A stretch of 64,000 nucleotides of DNA from Corynebacterium oculi (GTDB lineage: Bacteria > Actinomycetota > Actinomycetes > Mycobacteriales > Mycobacteriaceae): NCBI RefSeq assembly GCF_001412105.1, contig NZ_LKST01000003.1:62001-126000 (forward strand). Reading direction: 5' to 3'. This document shows, one piece after another, positions 25,280 through 64,000 of the stretch (its first letter is position 1; the number at the start of each line of letters is the position of its first letter). Both the position numbers and the translations under genes were made by a program. The notes under the pieces are model-generated. The model saw only the letters and a list, made by a program, of their open reading frames with translations. It had not been told where the DNA came from and searched no databases.

Positions 25280-26235
25280 GGCGGCGGGTGGTGCGCGCCC
25301 GCGCGCACGGCAAGGTGAACGTCTTTTTGGGGGTGGGGGAGGCCCGCGCGGATGGGTTCCATGAACTTTCCACGGTGTTCCAGGCGGTGAGCCTGCACGA
25401 TGACCTCGCCGTGGAGGCCGTGCCCGCCCGCCGGGTGGAAAGCGGCCCGCACGTGCGCGGGGTGCGGGTGACGGGCCTGGACGCGCAGAAGGTGCCCACG
25501 GACTCCACCAACCTCGCGGTGCGCGCGGCCGAGGCCGTGGTGGCGCGCTATCGGAAGCGCCACGGGCTTTCCTGGGCACCGGCCCTTTTCATGCACCTGC
25601 ACAAGGGGATTCCCACCGCCGGGGGCATGGCCGGGGGCTCGGCGGACGCGGCGGCCGCCCTGCGCGCCACCGCCGCGCTCTTTAGCCCGGAGTACCCGGC
25701 CCTTCCAGAGGAAGAACTCTATGAGATCGCCGCGGAACTCGGCTCGGACGTGCCTTTTACCCTCATGGGCGGCACCGCCTGGGGGCGCGGGCGAGGGGAG
25801 AACCTCACTCCCGTGCTGAGCAAGGGGCGCTACCACTGGGTGTTCGCTCTCTCTCGCGAGGGGCTATCCACCCCTGCGGTGTTCAAGAAGCTGGACGATC
25901 TGCGCTACGCCCGCCCGGAGGCCGCGCCCCACCTGGACGTCACCGCCGTGACCAAGGCCCTGGCCAGCGGCGATCCCCTGGCGGTGGCGGTGCACATGCA
26001 CAATGATCTGGAACCCGCCGCGCTGCAACTCATGCCCAGGCTGCGGGTGGCCCACGGCGCGGCGGTGGAGTTGGAGGCCCTGCGGTGCGTGGTTTCTGGT
26101 TCCGGGCCCACGTTGGCATTCCTGTGCCGGGACGAGGCCACGGCGGAAGCGGTGGCGGAGGGGCTGCTGGCCCAGAACCTGGCCAGCCGCGCGGTGGTAG
26201 CCCACGGGCCGGTGCCGGGGGCGCGGGTGCTCTAG
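25276..26235 (+). CDS. ispE: 4-diphosphocytidyl-2-C-methyl-D-erythritol kinase
   Basis: 319 residues from GTG 25276. GHMP kinase of the MEP isoprenoid pathway: [19 protein letters not shown] substrate motif, ATP loop [19 protein letters not shown] and the C-terminal [11 protein letters not shown]. It is the last gene of the tatD-rpf2-rsmA-ispE run; its stop overlaps the convergent ABC ATPase by 4 nt. Confidence 0.96.
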
Positions 26236-26843
26236 GCCAGGGAAATCTGCTGATCGCAGAGACCGGCCAGGGCCTCATCGTGCGTGGCTATGAGCACCAG
26301 GGCCCCGGCTTGGGCCCGCTCGCGGAGCAGCGAGGTGACCGTGGCGCGGTTGCGCGCGTCCAGGGAGGCGGTGGGTTCATCGGCGTAGATGACGGAGGAT
26401 TCCTTATAAATGGCCCGCGCGATGCCCAGGCGTTGTTTCTCTCCACCAGAGAGCGTGGCGGCGGTGGCCTTGGCCTTGTTTGCTAACCCGACGCTGGCCA
26501 ATGCGGCGTCGGCCACCGCACCATACCCTCGGCGCAGGGTGACGTTATAGCGCGCGCTTTCCTCCTCGATGATGCCGTAATCCTGGTAGATGAAGGCCGC
26601 GTGCTCTCCCCAGAAGCGGGTACGCTCGCGGTCTTTCCAGGAGGTGGTATCCACCCCATCGACGAGTACCTTTCCCGTGGTGGGGCGCTGAATGAGCCCC
26701 AGGCAGGCCAGGAGGGTGCTCTTTCCACAGCCCGAGGGGCCCGTGAGGGCCACCATGCGGCCCGGTTCCAGGTGGAGATCGAGGTGGCTGAGGATGGTGC
26801 TGCCCGCGAGGGTGATGCCGAGGTCACGGGTGTCAATGTTCAT
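26232..26843 (-). CDS. ABC transporter ATPase, lactococcin-972 bacteriocin-export group
   Basis: 203 residues. Walker A GPSGCGKST, Q-loop FIYQDYGIIEEES, signature LSGGEKQR, Walker B VIYADEPTASLD and H-loop IATHD. The Q-loop context followed by NVTLRRGYG is typical of the small LolD-like ATPases that accompany bacteriocin-associated membrane proteins. AGGAGA precedes the ATG. It follows the 664-residue permease by 9 nt and surely works with it. Confidence 0.82.
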   Translation of the reverse strand: MNIDTRDLGITLAGSTILSHLDLHLEPGRMVALTGPSGCGKSTLLACLGLIQRPTTGKVLVDGVDTTSWKDRERTRFWGEHAAFIYQDYGIIEEESARYNVTLRRGYGAVADAALASVGLANKAKATAATLSGGEKQRLGIARAIYKESSVIYADEPTASLDARNRATVTSLLRERAQAGALVLIATHDEALAGLCDQQISLA

Positions 26844-26852
26844 GGGAGTCTC

Positions 26853-28847
26853 CTAGGGGTGACGGGCGACGGTGCGGCGGAAGGCCTGGGCGGCACAGGC
26901 GCGGTAGAACAGGGCGCTGGCGGCGAGACTCAACACGAGCACCGCCGCCCCGGAGGCCAACAGAATCAGGGGATCGGGGTGACGCAGCACAAAGGTGAGG
27001 GCGCCCGCGAGCGCCACGATGAGGGAGGCGCGGAGGGCGTCGATACGCAGCGGGGCGCCGATCATGGCGAGGTAGGGGTGCCCCGCGAGGTGGCGCGTGG
27101 TGATTCTCCGGGCGTTGCGGGTTGCCCAGAGGGCGGCGTTCTGTGTCCCGCTGAGGAAGATCGCGGCCAGGATAAGCACGACGGTGAGGAAGTACATGCG
27201 GGATTCCTCCTGGAACTTCCGCGCCTGATCCAGGGAGAGCTGCGCGATGGAGTCCACGGAGTAGACGTAGGGATCAAGATGGTGGCGGGCCAAGGCTTCC
27301 CGGAGGGCCCCTTCCTCGGCGGAGACGATGTTTCCCGAGGACAGGGTGGGAAGGAGAAACCCCTCGACGCTGAAGGAGGCGAGTGGGGCATCGGTGACCA
27401 CGAGGAGGGAATCCGTGGCCTGAGTGGTGTTGCCCCCGAGCACCACCCCGGCCTCCATCGCGGGAACGGGGGTGGCGCCATTGAGGTAGTAGCGCAGCCC
27501 GGCGTTATCGGTGCCATCGCGGGAGAGGAGGGAAAGTTGCTGATCTTTGCCCAACCAGCCCTGCGCAAAGGTGGGGGCGGCCTGGGGAAGCGAGACCTCC
27601 GTGAGGTCATCGGGGGAGATGCCGAAGGCATGCAGCCAGGCCTCATCGGTGATGATGACGTGCCGGAAGCCGTCCATCTCCTCGCGCGAGTAGGAGATGG
27701 AGGAATCAAGGGTGAGGGAGATTCTGAGGTTGTCGGAGTCGCTGAGTTCTTGCAGCGCCGCCGCCACGTTGCGGGGTCCCTCCGGGGTGTCAAGGAGGCT
27801 GGTGGAATCAGAGAACGATACCCGCACCGTGCCCTTCATGGCCTCCCACAGGGCGTGATCCTGGGCCAGGCGATGCGAATGGAGCGCGAGGGTGGCGGTG
27901 CTGGGCACTACGAGGAGGGCTACCACCAGGGTCGCGCCGTGCAAGACCAAACCCATGCGCCGGAACCCGTGCGGTATGTGGCGGTGGGCCAGAGCGTCAA
28001 CGCTGGGCCGCCCCACCGCGCTGAGCAGTACGAAGGACGCTAGGGCCAGAGCAAAGGCCGCTCCCTGCACGAGGAGAACGCGAGACCAGACCAGGGGAAG
28101 TTGCTCCGACCCGTGGGCGGACACCACCCAGAATAGGCAGGCGAGGCTGCCTACCAAGAACCCGGGGGCCAGCAGTGCTGTGATGGAGAGGGAGTCCTCG
28201 CGGTGAATACGCTGGCGGGGTACGCCACCGAGGAGGCGGAGGCTGCGTCCGCGTTCCCTGCCCAACAACCACGCGGAGAGCGCGGCGGTGAGCGTGAGGA
28301 ATGTGGCCAGGGCGGCGTTGCCCGCCCCGTTGTGAATGAGGTACGCATACACCAGGCGGATGGGGGAGGTGGGGTTCTCCCACTCGATGCTCGCCTGGTG
28401 CTCCCGGGCCCATGCGTCCAGGGCGGCACGGGTCTCGGGGGAGGAAGAGAGCACATAGCGCCCGGAGAGGGGAGTGGTGCCCAGCGCCGTGTACGGCAGG
28501 AGGGAGCCGTGACTGTGCCGGGAGAACCACTGGATAGAGTCCCCGTCCAGGGATACCGCCGTGGCCGGAGGGCGAGCGCCAAAGAAGAAAATATCGTGGG
28601 CGGTGTCACCCTCGGGGGCCTCCTTGCTCGTCTCCCGGAGCAGGGAAACGCCGTGCTCCTCGACCACGCGGTGCAGGCTGGTGGCCACCTCCTCCTTGGG
28701 CAGGGTGCTCTCGTTGATGCGCAGGCTCAGCGCCGTGGTGGTGCCAAAGGGTTGGTGTTCCTGCTGAAAGGCGAAGCTTTGGAGCGCTAATACCCCACAC
28801 ACCAGGGAGAGAACCAGGGCAGCGGCGCGGATAATCCACCGGATCAT
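26853..28847 (-). CDS. Bacteriocin-associated integral membrane protein (ABC permease)
   Basis: 664 residues from ATG 28847, with GAGAGGAAG upstream. FtsX/MacB-like layout in duplicate: an N-terminal helix, a large external domain (about 30-170), four helices (about 175-330), a second external domain (about 350-530) and three helices near the end (MYFLTVVLILAAIFLSG; LRASLIVALAGALTF; LASGAAVLVLSLAAS). This matches the membrane partner of lactococcin-972-type systems. No bacteriocin gene is adjacent in the window. The role may be export of, or protection from, a peptide. Confidence 0.75.
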   Translation of the reverse strand: MIRWIIRAAALVLSLVCGVLALQSFAFQQEHQPFGTTTALSLRINESTLPKEEVATSLHRVVEEHGVSLLRETSKEAPEGDTAHDIFFFGARPPATAVSLDGDSIQWFSRHSHGSLLPYTALGTTPLSGRYVLSSSPETRAALDAWAREHQASIEWENPTSPIRLVYAYLIHNGAGNAALATFLTLTAALSAWLLGRERGRSLRLLGGVPRQRIHREDSLSITALLAPGFLVGSLACLFWVVSAHGSEQLPLVWSRVLLVQGAAFALALASFVLLSAVGRPSVDALAHRHIPHGFRRMGLVLHGATLVVALLVVPSTATLALHSHRLAQDHALWEAMKGTVRVSFSDSTSLLDTPEGPRNVAAALQELSDSDNLRISLTLDSSISYSREEMDGFRHVIITDEAWLHAFGISPDDLTEVSLPQAAPTFAQGWLGKDQQLSLLSRDGTDNAGLRYYLNGATPVPAMEAGVVLGGNTTQATDSLLVVTDAPLASFSVEGFLLPTLSSGNIVSAEEGALREALARHHLDPYVYSVDSIAQLSLDQARKFQEESRMYFLTVVLILAAIFLSGTQNAALWATRNARRITTRHLAGHPYLAMIGAPLRIDALRASLIVALAGALTFVLRHPDPLILLASGAAVLVLSLAASALFYRACAAQAFRRTVARHP

Positions 28848-28985
28848 GGCGCTTCCTCTCAAAAAGATAAATGAGGTGGAATGAGCGCGTCCTTGGCTCC
28901 GGGGTATCGGAGATCGGTGGGCAGCAGGTGAGGGGTATTTTTAAGGAGGCCGTGCAACCCCGTCTACAGGACGATTGGTGGTCTG

Positions 28986-50154: not shown

Positions 50155-51909
50155 CTATTCGATCCGAGCCAGGGCGGTGCCGCGTTCCACGGCATCGCCA
50201 GGGGAGGTCAGAAGATGAATGGTACCGGAGCGCGGGGCGGTCACGTTGGATTCCATCTTCATCGCCTCCACCGTGGCCACGGCCTGGCCCTCGGTGACCT
50301 CCTCGCCGTCCTCCACCTTCCACGCCACCAGCGTGCCGGTGTAGGGGCAGACCACCTCATCGCCGCTCCTGCCGCTTTCCGACGCCCCCGTGGCCGCCGC
50401 CCCCTTGCTCGCCGTCGCGGGCGCGGCTGCCGCGCTGGTGAACAGGTGCGCAGGCAGCCCCACGGAGTGCAGGCGGCCGTCGATCTCGATGGTCACGGTG
50501 GTGCGCTCGGTGTAGGCCTCCTCGATGGCCTCGGCGGAATCCCCAAAGGTGGGGGTGTATTCCTTGTCCACCCAGTTCGTGTAGATGTCCAGGCTGTCCC
50601 CGATCAACGCCGGGTGCTCCACGATGTCGCGCTGGAAGGGCAGCACCGTGCGCACGCCCTCGATGCGGAACTCGCGCAGGGCGCGGCGGGCGCGCACCAG
50701 GGCGACCTCGCGGGTGGGGCCCCACACGATCAGCTTGGCCAGCAGGGAATCGTACACGCCCGGAATGCTAAAGCCCGCGCGCACGCCCGTGTCCACGCGG
50801 ATACCGGGGCCCAGCGGCGGCTCGAAGGCGGTGATGGTGCCGGGGCAGGGCACGAAGCCGTGGGCGACGTCCTCCGCATTGATGCGGAACTCAAAGGCGT
50901 GCCCGTTGGAGGTGGGATCGCCCTCGAAGGAAAGGGGGTGGCCTGCGGCAATGCGGAACTGCTCCGCGATGATGTCCAGGCCGGTCACGGCCTCGGTGAC
51001 GGGGTGCTCCACCTGGACGCGGGTGTTGACCTCCAGGAAGGAGACGGTGCCGTCCTCGGAGACGATGAACTCCACCGTGCCCGCCCCCAGATACCCGGCC
51101 GCGCGGCACACCTCGCGCGCGCCCTCGATGATCGCGGTGCGCTGCTTATCGGTGAGGAAGGGCGCGGGAGCCTCCTCCACGAGCTTCTGGAAGCGCCGCT
51201 GCGTGGAGCAATCCCGGGTGCCCAGCACGGCCACGTTCCCGTGGCTATCCGCCAACACCTGGGCCTCCACGTGGCGGGGCTTGGTGAGGAACTTCTCCAC
51301 AAAGCACTCCCCGCGCCCAAAGGCCTCCGTGGCCTCGCGCCCAGCGGAGAGGAAGGCGTCCTCGATCTCGCTGGCCTCGGAGACCACCTTCAGGCCGCGC
51401 CCGCCGCCGCCGAAGGCCGCTTTGATGGCGATGGGCAGGCCGTGCTCCTCGGCGAAGTCGCGGGCCTGCTCCCAGGAATCCACCGGGTCGGAGGTGCCGG
51501 GAGCCAGCGGCGCGCCCACGGACTCCGCGATGCGGCGGGCCGAGACCTTATCGCCCAGGGAGTCGATCGTTTCCGGGCGCGGGCCGATCCAGGTCATGCC
51601 CGCCGCGATGACGTCGCGGGCAAAGGAGGAGTTCTCCGAGAGGAAGCCGTAGCCGGGGTGAATGCAGTTCGCGCCCGCGCGCACGGCGATGTCGATGATG
51701 GCCGGGGCGTTGAGGTACGTCTCCGCCGGGGAGGTTCCGGGGAGGCGGTAGGCCTCGTCGGCCGCCAGCGCGTGCGGGGCCTCGGCGTCGGCATCGGAGT
51801 ACACGGCGATGGACCTCATGCCGAGGTCGGCAGCCACGCGGGCGATGCGCACGGCGATCTCGCCGCGATTGGCGATGAGAACGGTGGACAGGGGGGTGAT
51901 CTCGCTCAT
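50155..51909 (-). CDS. Biotin carboxylase with C-terminal BCCP domain
   Basis: 584 residues from ATG 51909. Biotin carboxylase domain (LIANRGEIAVRIARVAADLG, ATP-grasp loop AAFGGGGRGLKVV, EVNTRVQVEHPVTE) to about 450, an Ala/Ser-rich linker, then a biotinyl domain with VEAMKMESNV, the Lys being biotinylated. No carboxyltransferase subunit is present. In this cluster it probably serves 5-oxoproline metabolism, as in other pxpBCA-accC operons, rather than fatty acid synthesis. Confidence 0.87.
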   Translation of the reverse strand: MSEITPLSTVLIANRGEIAVRIARVAADLGMRSIAVYSDADAEAPHALAADEAYRLPGTSPAETYLNAPAIIDIAVRAGANCIHPGYGFLSENSSFARDVIAAGMTWIGPRPETIDSLGDKVSARRIAESVGAPLAPGTSDPVDSWEQARDFAEEHGLPIAIKAAFGGGGRGLKVVSEASEIEDAFLSAGREATEAFGRGECFVEKFLTKPRHVEAQVLADSHGNVAVLGTRDCSTQRRFQKLVEEAPAPFLTDKQRTAIIEGAREVCRAAGYLGAGTVEFIVSEDGTVSFLEVNTRVQVEHPVTEAVTGLDIIAEQFRIAAGHPLSFEGDPTSNGHAFEFRINAEDVAHGFVPCPGTITAFEPPLGPGIRVDTGVRAGFSIPGVYDSLLAKLIVWGPTREVALVRARRALREFRIEGVRTVLPFQRDIVEHPALIGDSLDIYTNWVDKEYTPTFGDSAEAIEEAYTERTTVTIEIDGRLHSVGLPAHLFTSAAAAPATASKGAAATGASESGRSGDEVVCPYTGTLVAWKVEDGEEVTEGQAVATVEAMKMESNVTAPRSGTIHLLTSPGDAVERGTALARIE

Positions 51910-51911
51910 GG

Positions 51912-53456
51912 TTAGGCTCCTTGATCCGGCTGATAGTGCGTAAAGCGCACGGTGGCGCCCGCGGGTAATTGGGCGGCGAGGTCTAAATCCTCGGGAATAA
52001 CGGTGGCGATAATGGGATAGCCGCCGGTGACGGGGTGATCGCGCAGGAACACCACCGGCGTGCCCTGGGGAGGCACCTGAATGCACCCGGCCACCACGCC
52101 CTCGCTGGCCAGCTCGCCCTCGTGGGCGCGGCGCAGCGGGGTGCCGTCCAGGCGCAGGCCCACGCGGTTGGAGTAGGGCGTGACGGTCCATTCCTGCTCT
52201 GTGAGCGCGGAGAACCCGCCCTCGAACCAGGAATCACGCGGCCCGGCCACGCACCGCAGCACGGCCGCCTCCCCGGGCCGCACGCGCAGCGGATTGACAG
52301 TGGGGCGCGCGGCGCCGCCCCGGCGGTGGGGGTGTACCCGCAGGATCTGCCCGGCCTCCAGGGGGGCGGGCCCCAGCCCGGAGAGCACGTCCGCAGAGCG
52401 CGATCCCAGCACCTGCGGGGCAGCCAATCCGCCGCGCACCGCGAGGTAGGAGCGCTGGCCCGCGCTGGCCGCGCCGATGGTCAGCGTAGCCCCGGCCGGA
52501 AGCACACGCGGGGCGCCCAGAGGGACGGCACGGCCGTTGATGGTGACCTCGGCCTGTGCACCGGTCACGGCCACCGTGGCATCGACCAGCGCGCTCAGCC
52601 GCAGCCCGCCGATGTTCTCTATCACCGCGCTGCCAGCGGGATTGCCCACCGCGCTATTGGCGGCATAGGCGCTGGCCCGATCCGCCGCCCCAGACTCGGT
52701 TACGCCGAGGTCACCGTGCCCGCCGCGCCCCTGATCCTGGACGAGGCTCAACAGGCCCGGATCATCCAGCGTGAGCGCGGGCAGGTGGATCCCGCTTATC
52801 GACGCCGCAGCGGCGGGCTCGGCCACCTCGATGGATTCCCGCACCGCGCGATAACGCACCGTATCTCCGGGGCGGATCGCCGCCGGTGGGGTGGCGGCGG
52901 AGTCCCACATGGGGGTGGGGGAGTGCCCCAGCAGCCGCCACCCGCCCGGGGAGGTGCGGGGATAGACGGCGGAGAAGGAATCCGCCAGCCCCACCGCGCC
53001 GTGGGGAACCTGGGTGCGCGGGCTTTCCAACCGGGGCACCCGCCGGGCCTGGGTGGGATCGAGGGGCACGCAGTAGGTAAAGCCGGGGGCGAAGCCGCCA
53101 AAGGCAGCCCGCCACGGCGTTTCCGTATGCCAGGCGATGAGTTCCTCGGTGGAGGTACCCAGCAACTCGGCCGTGTGGGCGAGGTCGGGGCCATCGTAGA
53201 CCACCTCTACCTCCACCTCACGCGGGGTTTGGGCGGTGGTTTCTTGGGGTTCTAAGGCAGCGAGCAGGTTCGCGGCCTGGCGGGCGTGGCGCGGGGACTC
53301 GGTAACCACCAGCACGGTGGTGGCGGCGGCGATGAGTTCCACCTGCCCCGGCACCGGGTGCGCGGTGAGGTGGGAGTGCCAGCGCAGGGCGAGGTCAAGC
53401 TCCCCAACTTCCACGAGGAGGGCGCGGGTGCCCACGCGGTGAATTGCAGTACTCAT
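51912..53456 (-). CDS. pxpBC: 5-oxoprolinase subunits B and C fused (KipI-KipA type)
   Basis: 514 residues. The N-terminal half is PxpB/KipI (FGGFAPGFTYCVPLD, SPRTQVPHGAVGLAD, TSPGGWRLLGHSP). From about 225 the PxpC/KipA part follows (SLVQDQGRGGHGDLGVTESG, ending RDHPVTGGYP). The two are separate genes in many bacteria. With PxpA it hydrolyses 5-oxoproline to glutamate using ATP. Its stop lies 2 nt before the biotin carboxylase ATG. Confidence 0.93.
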   Translation of the reverse strand: MSTAIHRVGTRALLVEVGELDLALRWHSHLTAHPVPGQVELIAAATTVLVVTESPRHARQAANLLAALEPQETTAQTPREVEVEVVYDGPDLAHTAELLGTSTEELIAWHTETPWRAAFGGFAPGFTYCVPLDPTQARRVPRLESPRTQVPHGAVGLADSFSAVYPRTSPGGWRLLGHSPTPMWDSAATPPAAIRPGDTVRYRAVRESIEVAEPAAAASISGIHLPALTLDDPGLLSLVQDQGRGGHGDLGVTESGAADRASAYAANSAVGNPAGSAVIENIGGLRLSALVDATVAVTGAQAEVTINGRAVPLGAPRVLPAGATLTIGAASAGQRSYLAVRGGLAAPQVLGSRSADVLSGLGPAPLEAGQILRVHPHRRGGAARPTVNPLRVRPGEAAVLRCVAGPRDSWFEGGFSALTEQEWTVTPYSNRVGLRLDGTPLRRAHEGELASEGVVAGCIQVPPQGTPVVFLRDHPVTGGYPIIATVIPEDLDLAAQLPAGATVRFTHYQPDQGA

Positions 53457-53459
53457 GCG

Positions 53460-54221
53460 CTACCCCTCGATAAAGCTGCGGATGCTCACGCCGTCTGCCC
53501 GCAGGCCCGCCACGATGGCTCGTGTCATCTCCACCGCGCCGGGGGAATCCCCGTGCACGCACACCGACTGCGCGTCCACGGGCACCTCCGTGCCATCGAC
53601 GGCCGTGACGCTCCCGCTGGCGGCCACCTGGCGCACGCGCGCCAGCACCTCCTCGGCGCTGCCCAGCACCGCGCCGGGCTCGCGGCGGCTCAGCAGCGTG
53701 CCATCGGGGTTGTAGCCGCGATCGGCAAAGGCCTCGCGGATCACGGTCATGCCCCGGCCCTCCGCCAGGTTCACGGCCACCCCGCCGGGCAGCAGCATGA
53801 GGGGGAGATCCCCGAAGGCCCGCACGCCGTCGATCACGGCCTGGGCCTGCTCTTTGTGGTGCACAATGGCGTTATAGAGCGCCCCGTGCGGCTTGACGTA
53901 GGAGACCTTGGTGCCGTGGGCGGCGGCCAGGGCGGAGAGCGCGCCGATCTGATAAAGCACCTCATCGGCCAGTTCCATAGGCGCGTAGTCGATGAAGCGG
54001 CGGCCGAAGCCGGGGGCGTCCTGGTATCCTACGTGCGCGCCGACGTTCACGCCGTGCTCGGCGGCGCGGCGCACGGTGGAGGCGATGGAGTGGGGGTCAC
54101 CGGCGTGAAAACCGCAGGCGACGTTGGCGCTGGAGACCAGAGAGATCATGGCGGCGTCATCGGCCACGGGGTTGCCAGCGGTGGTTTCTCCGAGGTCGGC
54201 GTTGAGGTCAATGTGGGACAC
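53460..54221 (-). CDS. pxpA: 5-oxoprolinase subunit A (LamB/YcsF family)
   Basis: 253 residues from GTG 54221, 9 nt after GGAGGG. Family blocks HIDLNADLGETTAGN, SSANVACGFHAGDP, GYQDAPGFGRRF and YVKPHGALYN. First gene of the operon pxpA-pxpBC-accBC-gntR; the TTGTTCAACAA operator lies 22 nt upstream. Confidence 0.94.
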   Translation of the reverse strand: MSHIDLNADLGETTAGNPVADDAAMISLVSSANVACGFHAGDPHSIASTVRRAAEHGVNVGAHVGYQDAPGFGRRFIDYAPMELADEVLYQIGALSALAAAHGTKVSYVKPHGALYNAIVHHKEQAQAVIDGVRAFGDLPLMLLPGGVAVNLAEGRGMTVIREAFADRGYNPDGTLLSRREPGAVLGSAEEVLARVRQVAASGSVTAVDGTEVPVDAQSVCVHGDSPGAVEMTRAIVAGLRADGVSIRSFIEG

Positions 54222-54242
54222 GGGGAGCAGCCCTCCTCTTGA

Positions 54243-54256
54243 AGATTGTTCAACAA
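54243..54256. promoter_or_regulatory. Operator of the 5-oxoprolinase regulon, copy 2
   Basis: AGATTGTTCAACAA, with the perfect palindrome ATTGTT-C-AACAAT, upstream of pxpA; identical over 14 nt to the copy before the NRAMP-like gene. Confidence 0.65.
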
Positions 54257-54431
54257 TGATTCCGTGGCCTCCGAGTGTAGCGGCCCGGGGCATATTGTGA
54301 AATCCGTCATAGGTGGAATTGGTATGTGGCATGACTTTCGTTGAGGAGGTGGGTAGGATGGGGGAGTCAGTACGCGAAAGATGGCGAGCACTGGCCGATC
54401 CCTATAGAGTAGAGTAGGGTGGGGGAGTCCA

Positions 54432-54917
54432 ATGAAAGGGGTTGTCACCATGACCAAGAGCTACGTGGCAAAAGGTCTGGCCAGCGCGATTGCGCTGGCT
54501 GCCGCGTTGAGCGGCACCGCCGTAGCCGGAGCCGAGGAAAGCTCGGCGTATGATTCTTACCAGTCCACCGGGCAGTCCGCTCTGGCGAGCCTGGCTCAAG
54601 AAATCTTCGATCTTACTAACCAGCACCGCGCGGAGTACGATGTCTCGCCCCTGCGTTACGATTCCTTCCTCGGCTGGAACGCCCAGCAGTGGGCCGAGGA
54701 ACTGCGCGATAACCACACGGTGAGCCACTCCGAGGACGCCGAGGTGGAGAACATCGCCTGGTTTAACAGCGCCCCCACCGCCGAAGAGGTGCTGGACTTC
54801 TGGTTGCAGAACCCCGGTGCACGCGAGAACCTGCTTGACCCCGAGCTGAACAAGATCGGCATCGGCATCGCCCAGGCAGAGGACGGCTCCTACGTGGTGC
54901 AGCGCTTCGAGGAGTAG
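54432..54917 (+). CDS. Secreted CAP-domain protein, second copy
   Basis: 161 residues from ATG 54432, with GGGGGAG upstream; ATG 54450 is an alternative. Signal peptide to about AVAGA. The CAP domain has LTNQHRAEYDVSPL, SHSEDAEVENIAWF and VVQRFEE, and is clearly related to the protein at 21.7 kb. The conserved second His of the CAP cavity (SPxHRxNIL) is replaced by Ala (NPGARENLLD), so the metal or ligand site is incomplete. Confidence 0.85.
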   Translation: MKGVVTMTKSYVAKGLASAIALAAALSGTAVAGAEESSAYDSYQSTGQSALASLAQEIFDLTNQHRAEYDVSPLRYDSFLGWNAQQWAEELRDNHTVSHSEDAEVENIAWFNSAPTAEEVLDFWLQNPGARENLLDPELNKIGIGIAQAEDGSYVVQRFEE

Positions 54918-57140: not shown

Positions 57141-57514
57141 ATGCTAATCAGCAAAAAATACAAGCCAATCGCATCGGCCGCTGCCGCGGTGATGGCTGTG
57201 GCTGGGGGGATGTTCGTGGCCGGGGTGGAGTCAGCCCATGCCGCCGGAGGGTGCCACATTCGTACTGATGTTCCCGATGCCGCTAACGATGCCACGGTGG
57301 GCCGGGCGGGTTGCGGTAACGCCCTGTGGGGTACCGGTCGGATCAAGGAAGATCGCAGTAACTTCCCCGATGACATAGTGGGCTCTAAGGGATTCATGGC
57401 AGGGTGAGCATGATCTATGGCTCTTGCGGTAATGGCAAGGGGAAGTACTACTCGGAGTTCAGTTCCAGCAGCGGGGCATTTGGGCAGTCAGCGCGTACCA
57501 CCACGTGCCTCTAG
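57141..57514 (+). pseudogene. Secreted cysteine-containing peptide, reading frame split (bacteriocin-like, cassette B)
   Basis: ATG 57141 follows TTTGGAGG. A signal peptide (SKKYKPIASAAAAVMAVAGG ... SAHA) leads to AGGCHIRTDVPDAAND and RAGCGNALWG; the frame stops at TGA 57405-57407 after 88 residues. From about 57404 the frame shifted by one continues VSMIYGSCGNGKGKYYSEF and ends RTTTCL at TAG 57512-57514, 2 nt before the ATPase ribosome site. Read through, the product would have about 124 residues and four cysteines. The last two are 26 residues apart, as in the partial peptide at the right edge. No slippery heptamer is visible, so a mutation or sequencing error is likelier than programmed frameshifting. 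Confidence 0.65.
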
Positions 57515-57528
57515 ATAAGGAGACTCTT

Positions 57529-58251
57529 TTGGCCTGTGTGAGCATCAAGGGGCTCTCCTTCCGCTATCGGAAGGCGGAGGTTCTCTGCGGGCTGGACTGG
57601 GAGGTGAGCAGCGGCGTCACCGTGCTGCTGGGTCCCAATGGTTCCGGCAAGAGCACCCTTATCAAATGCCTGGCGGGTATCCTCCCGGTGCAGGAAGGCG
57701 CTATTACCTTTGCGGAGGGCGGTTCCGGCATAGGGTACGTTCCACAAAACCCCAGTCTGCCGGGTCTCGCACGGGTGCGGGATCTTCTCAGCTACCCCGC
57801 CTGGCTGAGTGGGGTGCCGCGTGGGGAGATCCCGCGCCGGGTGGATACGGCGGTGGAGCGCCTGGATTTGGGCGCACTTCAACGACACAGGGTACGTACC
57901 CTCAGCGGAGGGGAGCTGCAGCAGGTGGCTATTGGCGCGGGGGTCATCAACGATCCCTCGCTATTGCTTCTCGACGAACCCACGGTGGGCTTAGATCCTT
58001 CTCAGCGCATGAGGACGCGCCGGATGATCGCGGGGCTGGGCACCTCCGTGGTGATGTCAACCCACCTCACGGAGGATATTCAGGCTATGGAGGCCCAGGT
58101 GGCGATTCTTTCGGAAGGGAAGATTCAGGCCTCCGGCAGCAGCCGGGATCTCTTGGCGCAGCAAACCAGCGAGGGGTACGGTTCCTCCTTCGAGGCCTTT
58201 TATGAACGCATTGTCCTGGGGAGAGGGGAAGATCATGGTTTCCCCGCCTAA
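57529..58251 (+). CDS. ABC transporter ATPase (peptide cassette B)
   Basis: 240 residues from TTG 57529, six nt after AAGGAG. Walker A GPNGSGKST, signature LSGGELQQ, Walker B LLLLDEPTVGLD and H-loop STHL. Resembles ABC-2-type exporters of peptides and antibiotics. The next gene's ATG lies inside its 3' end. Partner membrane proteins are the two downstream genes. Confidence 0.88.
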   Translation: MACVSIKGLSFRYRKAEVLCGLDWEVSSGVTVLLGPNGSGKSTLIKCLAGILPVQEGAITFAEGGSGIGYVPQNPSLPGLARVRDLLSYPAWLSGVPRGEIPRRVDTAVERLDLGALQRHRVRTLSGGELQQVAIGAGVINDPSLLLLDEPTVGLDPSQRMRTRRMIAGLGTSVVMSTHLTEDIQAMEAQVAILSEGKIQASGSSRDLLAQQTSEGYGSSFEAFYERIVLGRGEDHGFPA

Positions 58252-59308
58252 GACGCACGTCCTCGCGCCTTTCCTCCTCATGGCGGTGGGAGGTTTTCTG
58301 GCCACGATGGATCTCTTGCACACAAGTTTCCCGGTATGGCAGCACCTCTCCGTGGCCCTCCATGAAAGACTGTGGCTTCCGGGTACCGCGCTGGTCGGTC
58401 TCAGTGCTTTCCTGGCGGTGCTGACCCACCCACGAGGTTCGATGCTGCACACCCCGGTGCATCCCCGTGCAGGGGCGTGGGATTTTCTCACGCAGGCGGG
58501 CGCGGTGACGGCTTTCTCTCTCATCGGGTACGCGGTGGGGCTGCTTCCCGTATTTATTCGGGGTGCGCGTTACGCCTCTTGGGGCCACATACACCTTACC
58601 GACGTCATGATCGCGGTCGCGGGTATAGCTCTGCTCGCGTGCTGTGGGTATGCCGTGGGAATGCTCGTGGGCCGCATGATGGTGGTACCCCTGGTGGTTA
58701 TCGTGACTTTCCTGCTTCTGGGGATCACGGTGGAACCATTGTGGCGGCCCTGGGGATTGGTGGTTCCCGTGCGTGGGGTTGAGGCGGATACCCGCTTTGT
58801 CACCAGCCCTTTTACGGCGATCTTTGCGGTGCTAGCCACGGTGGTGGCGGTGCTTTTTCTGGGCTACCTGGTGCAATCCAGGTTGCGTGGGGGCATAGGC
58901 CACCTCACCTGGGGCCTGGCGCTGTGTGCCGTGGTGGCTACCGCCTTTGTGTGGCGCCCGGAGATCTATGTGGTAGATCCCGGGCTAGAGCAGCGATGCC
59001 ATGAGAATCAGGGGGTGCAGGTGTGCCTGCACGCCGCGCACCTTCCGGCTCAGGCGGACGTGGATGCGGTGGTGACTCGCCTGCGGCAGGCGGGGCTGGG
59101 TGAGAGCCTCCGCGAGGTCAATGATCGCGCTGTGGTGGACCGCGATGATTCTCGCGCAGGGGAGGGTTTTGTGGACATCTTCACCGGCCCCTTTTCGGTA
59201 AACACCATTCCAGCCTCCACGGAGGAAGGGGTGGCCTACAGCGCAGTTAATTCCCTTATTGCTCACGGCTGTGTGTGGTCGAAGGAGGGCGGAATCGCGA
59301 TGCCGTGA
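58235..59308 (+). CDS. ABC permease-like membrane protein with extracytoplasmic Cys domain (cassette B)
   Basis: 357 residues from ATG 58235, with GAGAGGGGAAG upstream. About seven hydrophobic segments to residue about 250, then a soluble domain with QRCHENQGVQVCLHAAH (C-x8-C), a helix DVDAVVTRLRQAGL and a late Cys in SLIAHGCVWSKE. The same features in the same order occur in the 426-residue protein of cassette C (C-x8-C and a late Cys), so I take them as homologues. Function inferred as the transport or peptide-recognition subunit. Confidence 0.72.
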   Translation: MVSPPKTHVLAPFLLMAVGGFLATMDLLHTSFPVWQHLSVALHERLWLPGTALVGLSAFLAVLTHPRGSMLHTPVHPRAGAWDFLTQAGAVTAFSLIGYAVGLLPVFIRGARYASWGHIHLTDVMIAVAGIALLACCGYAVGMLVGRMMVVPLVVIVTFLLLGITVEPLWRPWGLVVPVRGVEADTRFVTSPFTAIFAVLATVVAVLFLGYLVQSRLRGGIGHLTWGLALCAVVATAFVWRPEIYVVDPGLEQRCHENQGVQVCLHAAHLPAQADVDAVVTRLRQAGLGESLREVNDRAVVDRDDSRAGEGFVDIFTGPFSVNTIPASTEEGVAYSAVNSLIAHGCVWSKEGGIAMP

Positions 59309-59466
59309 TGAACCTCAGAAATAATGTTTTGTATCTGGCTGAGTACGAGGCCCTGCTCGATGACTCCTGGAGCGCCGGGGTGAGGTTCTCGGCCCAAGAG
59401 GTGGAGTCCATCATGGCCCGCCACGAGGAGGATATTTACGCCTGCCGTTGGGATGGCACCCCATGA
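59308..59466 (+). CDS. 52-residue protein coupled to cassette B
   Basis: ATG overlaps the previous stop (TGATG) and the stop overlaps the next ATG (ATGA), so the ORF is fitted exactly between its neighbours. MNLRNNVLYLAEYEALLDD at the N terminus, acidic, no signal or membrane segment, one Cys (YACRWDGTP). No family recognised; its counterpart is not seen in cassette C. It could be an immunity or adaptor protein. Confidence 0.55.
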   Translation: MNLRNNVLYLAEYEALLDDSWSAGVRFSAQEVESIMARHEEDIYACRWDGTP

Positions 59467-60083
59467 GCGGGGTCGTGCGGGGCTTTATGCATGTGCGTGG
59501 TATTCCTGCGACGCTTGTGCTCGTGCTGGTAGCCATGACTGCCTCGGTGGCGTTGGCAACGGTCTCGGTGGGGGTAAGCGTGGAGCCGGGTCAACCCACG
59601 CGGGCAGTGGGAGCCCCGGAAATCTTTCCCGCCTTTCTCGCCATGTGCCTGCCGCTGGTGTGCGTCCCGCGTTTCTCCGGCCGGGAGGCGGTGGGTTCCT
59701 TATGTTCACGGGTGGTACACACTATTTTCTCCTTAGGGGTGGGCTTTCTTCCCAGCCTTGCTGCGGTGGCGTGGCACCTTTACGTTGATGCCCGCTATAC
59801 AGGTATTCCTCCTCTTCTGCCCTTGCTGGGGACTCCTGTGGTGTTAGGTTTGCTGGGGGTGGTGGCGCTCTATGCCGCCGGAGCGGTGTGGTCTGTCCTC
59901 GCCCCCGGAGCGCTCATGGTCACCATTGTGCTGGCCCAGCATCTCGCCCCGGAGGCGGCATTCTCCCAGTACTTCTCCACCGCTAAGGAGTGGGTGATTC
60001 CGTGGGAACTCTGCCTGGTGCTTTTGGCGTTAGCCACCGGGTTGGCATGGCGTAGGCATTCTCTTCCCCCGGGCGCGATTTAG
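59463..60083 (+). CDS. Six-helix membrane protein (cassette B, second permease)
   Basis: 206 residues from ATG 59463. About six hydrophobic segments; no motif. Equivalent in size and position to the 204-residue protein ending cassette C. Probably forms the ABC complex with the ATPase and the Cys-domain permease. Confidence 0.68.
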   Translation: MSGVVRGFMHVRGIPATLVLVLVAMTASVALATVSVGVSVEPGQPTRAVGAPEIFPAFLAMCLPLVCVPRFSGREAVGSLCSRVVHTIFSLGVGFLPSLAAVAWHLYVDARYTGIPPLLPLLGTPVVLGLLGVVALYAAGAVWSVLAPGALMVTIVLAQHLAPEAAFSQYFSTAKEWVIPWELCLVLLALATGLAWRRHSLPPGAI

Positions 60084-60098
60084 CGGGTGATTGCCTGT

Positions 60099-60117
60099 TC
60101 TATATGGTCTCTATATG
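60099..60117 (+). repeat. Direct repeat TCTATATG x2, 11-bp period
   Basis: Copies at 60099-60106 and 60110-60117, on one face of the helix, about 130 nt upstream of the SGNH hydrolase start. May be a response-regulator site. The rest of 60084-60249 shows only the promoter. Confidence 0.35.
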
Positions 60118-60243
60118 CTCGGAGGCTTGATGATGTGTGTTCAGGGTTAATGCCTCGTGAGGGTGGGTCTCCCAGCGTCCAAGCCGGCGATCACGGCGAA
60201 GGCGCTCCGTGAGGTTTACCAAAACCCAATGGTCTTATACTAT

Positions 60244-60273
60244 ACGTTCATGAAGAAAACGTTCATGAAGAAA
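60244..60273 (+). repeat. Tandem 15-bp repeat duplicating the start codon of the SGNH hydrolase
   Basis: ACGTTCATGAAGAAA occurs twice without gap, giving MKKTF-MKKNL. TATACT (60236-60241) ends 8 nt before the first ATG. Confidence 0.85.
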
Positions 60274-61161
60274 AACCTTTTCGTGCGGAAAGCGGCCGCC
60301 GTTGCCCTCGGCATCGTCATGGCGAGCGCTCCTCTCGCCACCGCTCAGCCCGCGATGTCCCTCGGCTCAGCCGTGCCCGCCGTCTGGGGCACCCCGCCGG
60401 AGGGTGCGCAGCAGATTGTTACCTTTGGTGATTCCTTCACCGCCATCGGCCCCATCGCTCCCGGTAACGGTGAGCACACGGAAAACGGCTACCAGCTCAA
60501 ACCCACCTGCAAGAAGGACACCCGCAACTGGCCACACTCCGCGGCACAGGCCACGAATAAAAGCCTGGCGGACTGGTCTTGCAACGGAACGGGCGGCATG
60601 ATGCCCCTGGTGGAACTTCCCGCCGTGGTGGAGGAGGCGATCCTCGCCGGGAACATCGGCCCCGGCACCGAGCGCGTGGTGATTATGTACGGAGGCCTCG
60701 ACACCTTCCAGTGGGTGGACGTGGCCGCCTCCATCGCCAACGCGCAGAACCTGGCCCCCAGCATGATGCAGGGCGTGTACGCCACGATCAAGAATCGAGT
60801 GGCCCAGGCCGCCCCCGACGCCGAAGTGGTCATCGCGGGATACCCGGAAATGGCCGCCGACGATCGCCTGTGCCTCATCAATCCCGTGCCCGATCAGCCT
60901 GCGGCGCTGCCCGCCCCTGGGGCCGACCTCATTCAGGATCACCTGCGCAACGCCGCGCGGCACGCCGCCGAGGCCAACGGCCTGCGCTTCATCGACACCC
61001 TGGAACTCACCCGGAGGCACGGCACCTGCGCCCCCAAACCCGAGGACAGGTGGGTGGTAGGTATGTATGACCCGGCGGTACCTACCAACCTCACCAACCA
61101 CCCCTCGATCAACGGCAGCATGGAGATCGGCAAGATCATCGGGCAGGAGTTGTACAGGTAG
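60250..61161 (+). CDS. Secreted SGNH/GDSL hydrolase
   Basis: 303 residues from ATG 60250; the -10 TATACT suggests a leaderless start, although the frame is open to 60157. Signal peptide KKNLFVRKAAAVALGIVMASAPLATA. Catalytic Ser in VTFGDSFTAIGP, Gly in the GTGG block, a VIMYGGLDTFQW segment where block III Asn is replaced, and His in TNHPSINGSMEIG. Several cysteines suggest disulfides. Probable esterase or lipase acting outside the cell. It lies between the two peptide-ABC cassettes; no evidence ties it to them. Confidence 0.82.
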   Translation: MKKTFMKKNLFVRKAAAVALGIVMASAPLATAQPAMSLGSAVPAVWGTPPEGAQQIVTFGDSFTAIGPIAPGNGEHTENGYQLKPTCKKDTRNWPHSAAQATNKSLADWSCNGTGGMMPLVELPAVVEEAILAGNIGPGTERVVIMYGGLDTFQWVDVAASIANAQNLAPSMMQGVYATIKNRVAQAAPDAEVVIAGYPEMAADDRLCLINPVPDQPAALPAPGADLIQDHLRNAARHAAEANGLRFIDTLELTRRHGTCAPKPEDRWVVGMYDPAVPTNLTNHPSINGSMEIGKIIGQELYR

Positions 61162-61169
61162 GTTTTTGC

Positions 61170-61784
61170 TTAGCGACGGGCGTCCAGCCTGGCGGTGTCC
61201 ACCGTTCCTAGGGCGAGCAGGCCGCCAAGCAGGAAGAACCCTCCGAGCGTCACGGTGAACGGATTGATCGTGAGCAATATGTTCCACTCCACCGGGTGAT
61301 CGATGTCCCGCCAGGGGTATAAAAGCAGGAAGAGCAGCACGGTTAGGGGCGGGGCCCAGGCCACCATGCGGGAGGAGAAAGCCGCGCTCAGGCAGCATAG
61401 CCCCTGCCAGAAGGCGGTGGCGGAAAGATACATGGCTACATCGCGGGCGGTGAGGCCGACGCCCGCGATGGCCTGTATGGTCGCCATGCTGATAATAAGC
61501 AGTAGAAACTGAGTGAGCATGATCCCGCCGAGGCTGAGTACACGTATCCGCAGCAGGCGAGTAGGAGCGGTGGCCTCCATCGCGGGGGCCACCGGGTGTA
61601 CCGTGCTAGCCGCGAGCGCGCCCAATACCACTGGGAGTAGACGGGTAAGCGGGGTATCGCGGATACCGTTGGCACCATAAATGCCATACGAGGTGGGAAA
61701 GAGCAGGAGTAGTAGCACGCAGGCCACGGCGCTAAGCGCCAGGGCGGTATAAACCCGCCGGGAAGAGAGGAAACTGCGGTACAT
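61170..61784 (-). CDS. Six-helix membrane protein (cassette C, second permease)
   Basis: 204 residues, MYRSFLSSRRVYTALALSAV at the N terminus, six hydrophobic segments, no motif. It follows the ATPase by 3 nt. Equivalent to the 206-residue protein of cassette B. Confidence 0.7.
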   Translation of the reverse strand: MYRSFLSSRRVYTALALSAVACVLLLLLFPTSYGIYGANGIRDTPLTRLLPVVLGALAASTVHPVAPAMEATAPTRLLRIRVLSLGGIMLTQFLLLIISMATIQAIAGVGLTARDVAMYLSATAFWQGLCCLSAAFSSRMVAWAPPLTVLLFLLLYPWRDIDHPVEWNILLTINPFTVTLGGFFLLGGLLALGTVDTARLDARR

Positions 61785-61787
61785 GGC

Positions 61788-62564
61788 TTAGGCTTCCGGC
61801 GTCGTGGTGTTCTTCATCCCGCTGAGCAGCCTGCGATAGGCGCTTTCCAGGGCGTCGATGGAGCGGTCCCCTGAGTCGGTGAGTGCTCGTGCCGGGCCGC
61901 TGTGCCGAATGGTGCCCTCGCCTAGTACCAGAATGTGATCCGCGCAGGAGGCTACGTCCTCCACTAGGTGTGTGCTGAGCAGAATCGTGGGGGGATCGTC
62001 TTGATCGCGCAGGCGGGAGAGTAACTGGCGGAACTCGTAGCGCTGCTCCGGGTCTAGGCCAGCCGTGGGTTCGTCCAGAATAATGAACTTGGGGGAACCG
62101 GCGATGCTCGCCGCGATGCCTGCCCGCTGGCGCATACCCCCGGAGAGTTCCTTGATCCGCGTGTCACTGCTGTTCTCTAGGCCCACGGCGGCGATGGCGC
62201 TCTCGGCGGCCTCCGCGCGCCGCGCGGCGGGGTATTCCCGCATCCATAGGCAGTAGCGCACGAACTCCTGCACGCTCATGCGCTCGTCCACGGAGAAGTT
62301 CTGCGGCAAGAACCCCAGGTTACGGCGAATATCGTTGCGCTCTGAGCGCAGGGCGGGATTAAGGCCGCCCATGCGGATCTCACCGGCACTCGGGGAGGCG
62401 ATGTTGGCCAGAATCCGTAGCAGGGTGCTCTTGCCAGCACCGTTGGGGCTGAGCAGGCCCGTGATGGAGTGGGCGGGAATATCAAAACTAAGGCCGTGGA
62501 GCACTTCCTTGCGGCGATAACCGGCGACGATCCCGGTGCAGGAGAAGGCGGGGTGATTATCCAT
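61788..62564 (-). CDS. ABC transporter ATPase (peptide cassette C)
   Basis: 258 residues from ATG 62564, whose start overlaps the permease stop. Walker A SPNGAGKST (first Gly is Ser), Q-loop LPQNFSVDERM, signature LSGGMRQR, Walker B FIILDEPTAGLD and H-loop STHL. Same subfamily as the ATPase of cassette B by general motif pattern. Confidence 0.9.
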   Translation of the reverse strand: MDNHPAFSCTGIVAGYRRKEVLHGLSFDIPAHSITGLLSPNGAGKSTLLRILANIASPSAGEIRMGGLNPALRSERNDIRRNLGFLPQNFSVDERMSVQEFVRYCLWMREYPAARRAEAAESAIAAVGLENSSDTRIKELSGGMRQRAGIAASIAGSPKFIILDEPTAGLDPEQRYEFRQLLSRLRDQDDPPTILLSTHLVEDVASCADHILVLGEGTIRHSGPARALTDSGDRSIDALESAYRRLLSGMKNTTTPEA

Positions 62565-63837
62565 GAGCACGAAACTCCTCGGGGTCATAGGAACAGGTGG
62601 CGGTAAAGGAAGAGAGCGCGGAGGCTAGGCGGGTGAGTTGTTCTTCCTCGCTGAGCTGGGCGAGTTCCCGGGAATAATCCAGGCGGGTGCCATCGCGCTC
62701 GGGATCGGAGGTGCTAAAGCCGGTGTAGGCGATGTCCCCGTAGAGGAAATTGGTCAGCAGGTCATAGAGCAGATCGGACTGCTCCGGTGCTTCGAGGGAG
62801 CAGGCGTCCGGCCATTGGCGGAGAAAATCGGCAAAACTCTGGGCGGCGGGCCAGCTGGGAGTATTCCCGCCGAGGGCAAAGATATAGGTGAGGAGGTATT
62901 CCTTCTTTTCCACCTCCTCCGGGGTTTTGGCGCGATCCTGGGGGATACCCGGCTCAATGGCAAGAATGGGCGTGGCGGGTAATCCCGCTGCCGCGCGCAG
63001 ATCGCGGGTGCGCTGAAGATAAGCGCGAATATCGTCCCACTTAAAGGAGTCCTCCCGCCAAATGCACAGGGTGTCCTCGCCCGAATCCTCGCAGAGGATA
63101 TTCTCATAGTCCGTGCGGACGTAGCCGCTGGTCTGCACGCCACCCATGCTGAAAATCGCGGCGACGGTGAGGGCGACGCCCACGATGGCGGTGGTACGGG
63201 AGGCCCGCGCGGTGATGGTGCGGCGAGCCGTGGTAAGCGGTACCGCGATGAACAGAATGAATGCGCAAATTACAATGACTTCCCACGAGGAAGGACGGAA
63301 AACATCCCAGGTGTCCACTTCTGCCGTGGTGAGTGCGATGTACATGCCGGCGTAGAGGCCAAGAAATAGGGCGATGATCGCGCTGCGCAGGGGGCCGAAG
63401 CGCAGGTGGGCGGTGAGCGCACCTAATAAATACAGTATGAAGCTAAAGGCCAGGGCATAGGCTCCGTAGCGAAGATCGAGGTACCCTGGAAGGGAGAGGA
63501 TAGCCCCGATGAGGAGCATGGCTCCCTGGGAAAGCAGGGTGGGGAGCAGAACGGAGAGGAGGTAGCCTCCGAGGATTTCCCGGAGGCGCACCACGAACCA
63601 GGAGCGCGGTGTGCTCAGCCAGATCGCCGTGCTGTGATGGGCAAGGCGGCTGGCCTCCTGCCAGGCGGCGATGGCACAGATGATTCCACCGGTAAAGACC
63701 AGGGGAGTCCATAGGGACATGGTGAGACCGTTATAAGAGGTAAACCAGACGTCCCTCATGATGAGGCAGAAGATGAGCCATATCGCGGGGATGGGTAATC
63801 CCGCGATGAGATGAGTGATGAGGCGTGAGCGCACCAT
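62557..63837 (-). CDS. ABC permease-like membrane protein with extracytoplasmic Cys domain (cassette C)
   Basis: 426 residues; AAGGAGG is 2 nt from the ATG and 5 nt from a following GTG, so either may start. About seven hydrophobic segments to residue about 235, then an external domain with ENILCEDSGEDTLCIWRED (C-x8-C), a charged helix DDIRAYLQRTRDLRAAAG, Cys in PDACSLE and a late Cys in SSFTATCSYDPEE. The C-x8-C and late Cys are shared with the cassette B permease. Confidence 0.75.
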   Translation of the reverse strand: MVRSRLITHLIAGLPIPAIWLIFCLIMRDVWFTSYNGLTMSLWTPLVFTGGIICAIAAWQEASRLAHHSTAIWLSTPRSWFVVRLREILGGYLLSVLLPTLLSQGAMLLIGAILSLPGYLDLRYGAYALAFSFILYLLGALTAHLRFGPLRSAIIALFLGLYAGMYIALTTAEVDTWDVFRPSSWEVIVICAFILFIAVPLTTARRTITARASRTTAIVGVALTVAAIFSMGGVQTSGYVRTDYENILCEDSGEDTLCIWREDSFKWDDIRAYLQRTRDLRAAAGLPATPILAIEPGIPQDRAKTPEEVEKKEYLLTYIFALGGNTPSWPAAQSFADFLRQWPDACSLEAPEQSDLLYDLLTNFLYGDIAYTGFSTSDPERDGTRLDYSRELAQLSEEEQLTRLASALSSFTATCSYDPEEFRAHG

Positions 63838-63855
63838 GTCCTCCTTAATTAGCCG

Positions 63856-64000
63856 TTACTGCCAGAGGGTTTGGCCGCTGTGGACGTTGGAGGCGCAGCC
63901 TACGGTGGCGATGCGAGTAACATTCGATCCGACGCCCACGTAGGACCAATTGCTGAGCCGAGTGGGCTGTGCCGTGCACCAGACCTTGGTGGACACCTGG
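63856..64000 (-). CDS. C-terminal part of a cysteine-containing peptide upstream of cassette C (cut by window edge)
   Basis: The last 48 residues are in the window: QVSTKVWCTAQPTRLSNWSY, then VGVGSNVTRIATVGCASN and SGQTLWQ before TAA at 63856. The two cysteines are 26 residues apart, exactly as in the split peptide of cassette B, and the stop lies 18 nt before the permease start. It is probably the exported peptide of this cassette. Its signal peptide and start are outside the window. Confidence 0.65.
   Translation of the reverse strand, partial: QVSTKVWCTAQPTRLSNWSYVGVGSNVTRIATVGCASNVHSGQTLWQ

What the first reader, a model, noticed from the sequence alone, without database searches (positions are those of the whole stretch)
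57141..64000. Two facing cassettes of peptide + ABC ATPase + Cys-domain permease + second membrane protein
Cassette B (57141-60083, plus) and cassette C (61170 to beyond 64000, minus) contain the same four parts, with gene order permuted. Seen in sequence: both large permeases end in a soluble domain with C-x8-C and a late Cys; both small membrane proteins have 204-206 residues; both cassettes begin with a small cysteine-containing peptide. I know no described system with this exact set. Inference: a bacteriocin-like or signalling peptide export and self-protection system, duplicated and diverged, perhaps as competing peptide/immunity pairs.
Basis: partly seen in the sequence, partly recalled or inferred. 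Interest (0 to 1): 0.85.

Follow-up and report, generated by a model that had tools for sequence, protein, structure and literature searches.

The report
Secreted-peptide and pump cassettes, facing pair
A Corynebacterium genome carries two facing gene sets, each coding for a small cysteine-containing peptide that is predicted to be secreted and for an ATPase and two membrane proteins that likely form a pump; the intact set is likely a peptide weapon against rival bacteria with its own protection pump, and the other, with its peptide gene and one pump gene broken, is likely a decaying relative.

Summary
The two facing four-part cassettes are real, but not equal. Cassette C is intact: a 105-aa peptide with a Sec-type signal (read by eye) and four Cys, a permease ending in a C-x8-C domain, an ATPase and a 204-aa membrane protein. 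The same four parts in the same order occur at 5 of the 7 peptide-family loci whose surroundings I could read, including an Actinomycetaceae MAG. Cassette B is decaying: here peptide and permease are each split over two frames; G063 has a deleted peptide B but an intact pump; G128 has a disrupted ATPase B; G033 has a B-type pump without a peptide.

ATPases B and C are each other's best match in this genome, and the permease profiles match above controls, so the pumps probably share an ancestor. The peptides do not match in sequence.

Most likely: a Sec-secreted bacteriocin with an ABC-2-like immunity pump, laid out like a lactococcin 972 operon. No activity is shown. New variant of a known kind.

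The parts
57141..57407 (+). Peptide B, first frame: Sec-type signal and first half of the mature peptide (2 of 4 Cys)
   Evidence: 91% identity to G128 over residues 21-88; this frame ends at 57407
57404..57514 (+). Peptide B, second half in another frame (other 2 Cys)
   Evidence: 92% identical to L031, where both halves lie in one frame
57505..58251 (+). ATPase B, ABC ATP-binding subunit (248 aa)
   Evidence: PF00005 85.9 bits; best other match in its genome is ATPase C
58202..59308 (+). Permease B, first frame (likely start at 58235): membrane part and C-x8-C domain
   Evidence: 84% identical to an intact 413-aa protein in G063
59275..59466 (+). Permease B, C-terminal remainder in another frame
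   Evidence: 88% identical to the end of the intact G063 permease
59448..60083 (+). TM2 B, small membrane protein (206 aa from the ATG at 59463)
   Evidence: 89% identical in G063
61170..61784 (-). TM2 C, small membrane protein (204 aa)
   Evidence: 84% G063, 76% G128, 45% G235, 26% Actinomycetaceae MAG
61788..62588 (-). ATPase C, ABC ATP-binding subunit (266 aa; likely start at 62564)
   Evidence: PF00005 108.2 bits; best NCBIfam model drrA 152.4 bits, below its cut-off
62557..63837 (-). Permease C (426 aa): about 7 transmembrane segments, then soluble domain with C-x8-C and two later Cys
   Evidence: membrane part resembles Mla, NosFY and ABCG permeases
63856..64000 (-). Peptide C, 3' part; the gene continues to 64173 in window numbering (105 aa: Sec-type signal, 4 Cys)
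   Evidence: L001:8857-9174 minus; family of 14 proteins, own one included; model mean pLDDT 83.7, beta strands only after the signal

Best explanation
Cassette C is likely a bacteriocin unit: its four-cysteine peptide has a predicted signal sequence by which it would leave the cell through Sec, and its predicted ABC pump of one ATPase and two membrane proteins would protect the producer. In detail: (1) the peptide starts with a Sec-type signal and has four conserved Cys [read from sequence]; (2) the mature part is predicted to fold as a small beta sandwich whose top structural matches are lactococcin-972-family bacteriocins [predicted]; [quoted passage not shown] (4) the ATPase and two membrane proteins would form an ABC-2-like transporter [predicted], whose C-terminal permease domain, likely outside and disulfide-stabilised, would bind the peptide or the peptide-target complex and pull it off [inferred]. 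Cassette B is a likely relative with a broken peptide: where its pump is still whole (G063), it could serve as leftover protection against a peptide no longer made [inferred].
Confidence: 0.6

Rival explanations
1. The peptide is a signal or cell-envelope protein, not a toxin, and the pump senses, imports or handles it as part of envelope homeostasis.
For: The genes compared are under purifying selection, the peptide included; the permease has a large extra domain that could be a receptor; no antimicrobial model matches.
Against: I saw no regulator among the near neighbours (read by eye; seven scanned); patchy distribution, 6 of 242 genomes in the genus, and separate lesions in cassette B argue against a housekeeping role.
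Confidence: 0.17
2. The pump exports the peptide, as in ABC-secreted bacteriocins.
For: Peptide and pump genes adjacent at 5 of 7 loci read; bacteriocin-linked ABC pumps are often exporters.
Against: Sec-type signal with A-x-A in both peptides; no peptidase domain in the pump proteins scanned; in G082 the peptide has no pump near it. The mediterrocin authors argue the same way for their Sec-type peptide (PMC12345188, passages).
Confidence: 0.1
3. The pump is a general drug or lipid exporter and the peptide an unrelated secreted passenger that happens to sit beside it.
For: ATPase C scores best against a drug-resistance model (drrA, 152.4 bits, below cut-off); the membrane part resembles lipid and drug pumps.
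Against: Peptide, permease, ATPase and TM2 stay together in the same order down to 27% permease identity in another family.
Confidence: 0.1

Closest known systems
Lactococcin 972 family systems (peptide + 7-TM DUF1430 protein + ABC ATPase), e.g. streptococcin B, mediterrocin
   Same: Sec-type peptide of similar length; predicted small beta-sandwich fold; order peptide, membrane protein, ATPase as in the two clusters of this genome; peptide lost with the pump genes kept in some genomes (streptococcin B)
   Different: No profile match of the mature peptide; four conserved Cys; pump looks ABC-2-like and has a second small membrane protein; permeases show no profile similarity to the membrane proteins of the two local lactococcin 972 clusters
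LanFEG lantibiotic immunity transporters (TIGR03740 ATPase; subunit make-up recalled)
   Same: One ATPase and two membrane subunits beside a peptide; ATPase C scores 127.1 bits to TIGR03740
   Different: Below the 309.75-bit cut-off; the first permease has an extra Cys-containing domain; the peptide has a Sec-type signal, and no modification enzyme was seen among the neighbours read or scanned
BceAB-type peptide resistance pumps
   Same: Works-like only: ABC pumps proposed to free lipid II cycle targets from peptides (PMC7038271, passages)
   Different: Kinship was not tested; the large outer domain of BceB is recalled
Actifensins (Actinomyces)
   Same: Cys-rich actinobacterial bacteriocin with two ABC permeases and an ATPase encoded upstream (PMC6989792, passages)
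   Different: 37-aa six-Cys defensin with a GA-type leader; peptide C is about 78 aa when mature, four Cys, predicted all-beta

Membership tests
Lactococcin 972 family bacteriocin | Match to PF09683 / TIGR01653 | tested here: not met
   No match up to E 1 or 10; mature-only hhalign score below the shuffle mean
Lactococcin 972 family bacteriocin | Small beta-sandwich fold | tested here: inconclusive
Lactococcin 972 family bacteriocin | Sec-type signal, no modification genes nearby | tested here: met
   Signal read by eye, no predictor; neighbours scanned are CAP protein, prfC, GDSL esterase, FMN reductase, Pth, NMO and one without a match
Lactococcin 972 system | Neighbouring DUF1430 / TIGR01654 membrane protein | tested here: inconclusive
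   No match for permeases B and C, but the local lactococcin 972 clusters also stay under the TIGR01654 cut-off (one 35.4 bits, one none)
Lactococcin 972 system | ATPase over the TIGR03608 cut-off | tested here: inconclusive
   ATPase C 110.2 bits, cut-off 254.85, drrA scores higher; but the two local lactococcin 972 ATPases also fall short (113.2 and 169.6 bits), although TIGR03608 is their best model
LanFEG immunity transporter | ATPase over the TIGR03740 cut-off | tested here: not met
   127.1 against 309.75 bits
LanFEG immunity transporter | One ATPase plus two membrane subunits (recalled) | tested here: met
   Gene content; that the three form one complex is not shown
ABC-2-type (type V) transporter | Permease fold like NosFY/ABCG | tested here: inconclusive
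Bacteriocin | Kills or inhibits other bacteria | not testable with these tools
   No assay

The most novel reading that the evidence does not exclude
A new class of four-cysteine, Sec-secreted beta-sandwich bacteriocins of actinobacteria, structural sisters of lactococcin 972, in which the usual immunity pair has been replaced by an ABC-2 pump that recognises its peptide through a disulfide-stabilised outer domain; cassette B records how such a unit decays into an orphan immunity pump and then a relic.
Probability: 0.4. Interest if true: 0.65.

Novelty: new variant of a known kind. Interest (0 to 1): 0.5.

Why it matters
No Pfam or NCBIfam model matched the peptides, the large permeases or the small membrane proteins over its cut-off. 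If right, this adds a class of unmodified, secreted peptide antimicrobials in corynebacteria and actinomycetes that these models miss, and an immunity pump with a separate domain on which specificity could be tested directly. In lactococcin 972 loci themselves the roles of the membrane protein and ATPase were still called experimentally unverified in 2024 (PMC11796350, passages).

Tried and rejected
Peptide C as a high-potential iron-sulfur protein: PF01355 at 20.5 bits, below its 22-bit cut-off; set aside. Peptide C as lactococcin 972 by sequence: the apparent 87% hhalign match vanished when signals were cut. Defensin-like (actifensin) reading: predicted fold and length differ. Plasmid or virus copies: no tblastn match of peptide C in 72,556 plasmid records, no match of two patterns in viral contigs. 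Wider spread of permease C: 1 of 394 genomes drawn from the class, the own one; at most 4 candidates per genome were scored. Weak peptide B hits in G083, G071 and G019 (E 0.005-0.008) lie in or beside other long frames and were set aside by eye. TM2 B against TM2 C: no similarity (17.8, reversed 18.4). Peptide B (G128) against the peptide C and lactococcin 972 profiles: none. C-terminal domains of permeases B and C alone: 13.7, 18 of 60 shuffles as high. No PADLOC match for the five proteins scanned.

Row choices. Context was read for 7 peptide loci; the other database members of the peptide family could not be placed. The lactococcin 972 profile A7 holds 14 of the 30 loci fetched (55 places listed); long pro-region and near-identical ones were left out. 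Permease B set: 5 sequences, without the 232-aa fragment P0025 and the window's broken copy; two of the five (P0024, G033) are near-identical. Permease C set: 7, without P0004 and the G063 fragment. Six of the eight control sets are single sequences, a weaker test than profiles. In one search two TM2 rows were translated from a wrong position, so its TM2 line is not used; one search repeats it.

Literature: searches (listings only) showed no paper on this gene set in the held library, from which most subscription papers are missing. Passages were seen of PMC11796350, PMC12345188, PMC12328743, PMC7038271, PMC6989792 and PMC12188740; no paper was read whole.

Full report
1. Where it is. The window is contig C3:62001-126000 of a 2.41-Mb, four-contig genome. 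Its kin are Corynebacterium: a 71,220-base contig of the same-genus genome G128 has the length and content of one of Corynebacterium sp. zg-331. Cassettes B and C face each other with a GDSL-type esterase between them (PF13472); prfC (release factor 3) lies outside B, and an FMN reductase and a peptidyl-tRNA hydrolase lie outside C. I fetched the sequence beyond the window edge to see the whole of peptide C.

2. The parts. C: 105-aa peptide, 426-aa permease, 266-aa ATPase, 204-aa membrane protein (TM2), on the minus strand and closely packed. B: peptide, 248-aa ATPase, permease, 206-aa TM2 on the plus strand. Both peptides begin with a basic start, a hydrophobic stretch and an A-x-A site; that is a Sec-type signal read by eye, as no signal predictor was available. 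Peptide B and permease B are each split over two frames in this genome.

3. Peptide C family. A search of 5.8 billion proteins gave 14 members, the own one included. In 16 aligned rows three Cys are invariant and the fourth is kept in 15. In the genus, 6 of 242 genomes have it, and a scan of genome contigs added an Actinomycetaceae MAG (its other locus is zg-331 again). Of these 7 loci, 5 (own, G063, G128, G235, MAG) hold all four parts in the same order; at G141 the peptide has only a partial permease (residues 31-170), and at G082 it stands alone. The surroundings of the remaining database members were not seen. Identities in the MAG are 51% (peptide), 27% (permease), 54% (ATPase) and 26% (TM2; E 1.5e-7). 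Some copies are damaged: permease C in G063 matches in two frames, and in G235 the signal part and mature part of the peptide do not read in one frame. In G235 cassette C lies beside prfC with no esterase between, and no B permease was found in that genome.

4. Cassette B elsewhere. Permease B was found in 3 of 242 genus genomes (own, G063, G033), and database proteins include one labelled C. mastitidis. In G063 ATPase, permease (413 aa) and TM2 are open frames, but peptide B has lost its middle: signal start and last residues remain. In G128 the mature part of peptide B reads in one frame but its signal lies in another, and ATPase B breaks off before a transposase-like frame (named by eye) at the contig end; part of TM2 B lies on the other contig. 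In G033 a B-type ATPase, permease and a 193-aa membrane protein stand without a visible peptide upstream, and neither peptide search found one in that genome. Between own and G063, dN/dS is 0.04 for prfC and 0.12-0.22 for the eight other genes compared, including ATPase, permease and TM2 of B. This pairwise value fits purifying selection on the B pump over at least much of the time since the split; it cannot date the lesions. Sequencing error cannot be excluded for single frame breaks, but the lesions differ between genomes.

5. Are B and C related? In the own genome ATPase B is the best other match of ATPase C (110.9 bits, next 106.1; 74 other places listed) and ATPase C the best of B (110.5, next 91.6; 76 others). 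BLASTP finds nothing between the permeases, nor did a profile comparison with 3 and 6 sequences. With 5 and 7 sequences hhalign gives score 41.0, probability 54%, E 1.3e-4 over 245 columns, with C-x8-C aligned in register. None of 60 column shuffles reaches it, and eight control sets of other membrane proteins, forward and reversed, and the reversed permeases reach at most 26.3 (six controls are single sequences, and the names I gave them, apart from the lactococcin ones, are by eye). The C-terminal domains alone give nothing. I take common descent of the pumps as likely, not proven. TM2 proteins and peptides show no similarity.

7. Comparison inside the genome. Two lactococcin 972 peptides lie elsewhere (C2:189626 and C3:221616), followed by a 567- or 642-aa membrane protein and an ATPase for which the lactococcin model TIGR03608 scores best, though under its cut-off. 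Cassette C has the same plan with another pump. Lactococcin 972 peptides occur in 43 of 242 genus genomes, so such peptides are common in the genus.

8. Reading. A peptide with its own secretion signal beside a pump it would not need for export, the layout of lactococcin 972 loci, a nearest fold among bacteriocins, patchy distribution, and loss of the peptide with the pump kept in G063 and absent in G033 all point to bacteriocin plus immunity. Pump genes without the peptide are published for streptococcin B (157 of 571 genomes with scbBC only; PMC11796350, passages), but there those strains are inhibited by producers and do not express scbBC on their own, so retention alone does not show protection. 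How the pump protects is inferred by analogy with BceAB target protection (PMC7038271, passages). Killing, binding and protection are untested.

9. Novelty. The peptides, large permeases and small membrane proteins match no Pfam or NCBIfam family over its cut-off. The kind of system is known; the combination was not found in the held literature (searches, listings).

Noticed in passing
window 61788-62588: The first glycine of the Walker A motif of ATPase C is Ser here (SPNGAGKS) but Gly in G063, G128, G235 and the MAG; it could weaken ATP use.
   Followed up: no
window 26232-28862: A 203-aa ABC ATPase and a 669-aa membrane protein resembling a lactococcin-972-type pump pair by size and order; no NCBIfam match for the 669-aa protein. 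A peptide was not looked for.
   Followed up: partly
L066:5522-8452 and L067:6281-9489: Two lactococcin 972 family clusters in the same genome; the first one's ATPase looks broken (matches in two frames).
   Followed up: partly
window 50155-54332: Cluster with biotin carboxylase-like, 5-oxoprolinase-like and LamB/YcsF-like frames (names by eye).
   Followed up: no
window 54432-54917: Small CAP-domain protein with a signal-like start (PF00188).
   Followed up: no
L001:9979-10608 and 14403-14978: Two peptidyl-tRNA hydrolase-like genes about 4 kb apart (the second by eye).
   Followed up: no
L024:7168-7488: Orphan member of the peptide C family in G082 without a pump in the 15 kb read.
   Followed up: no
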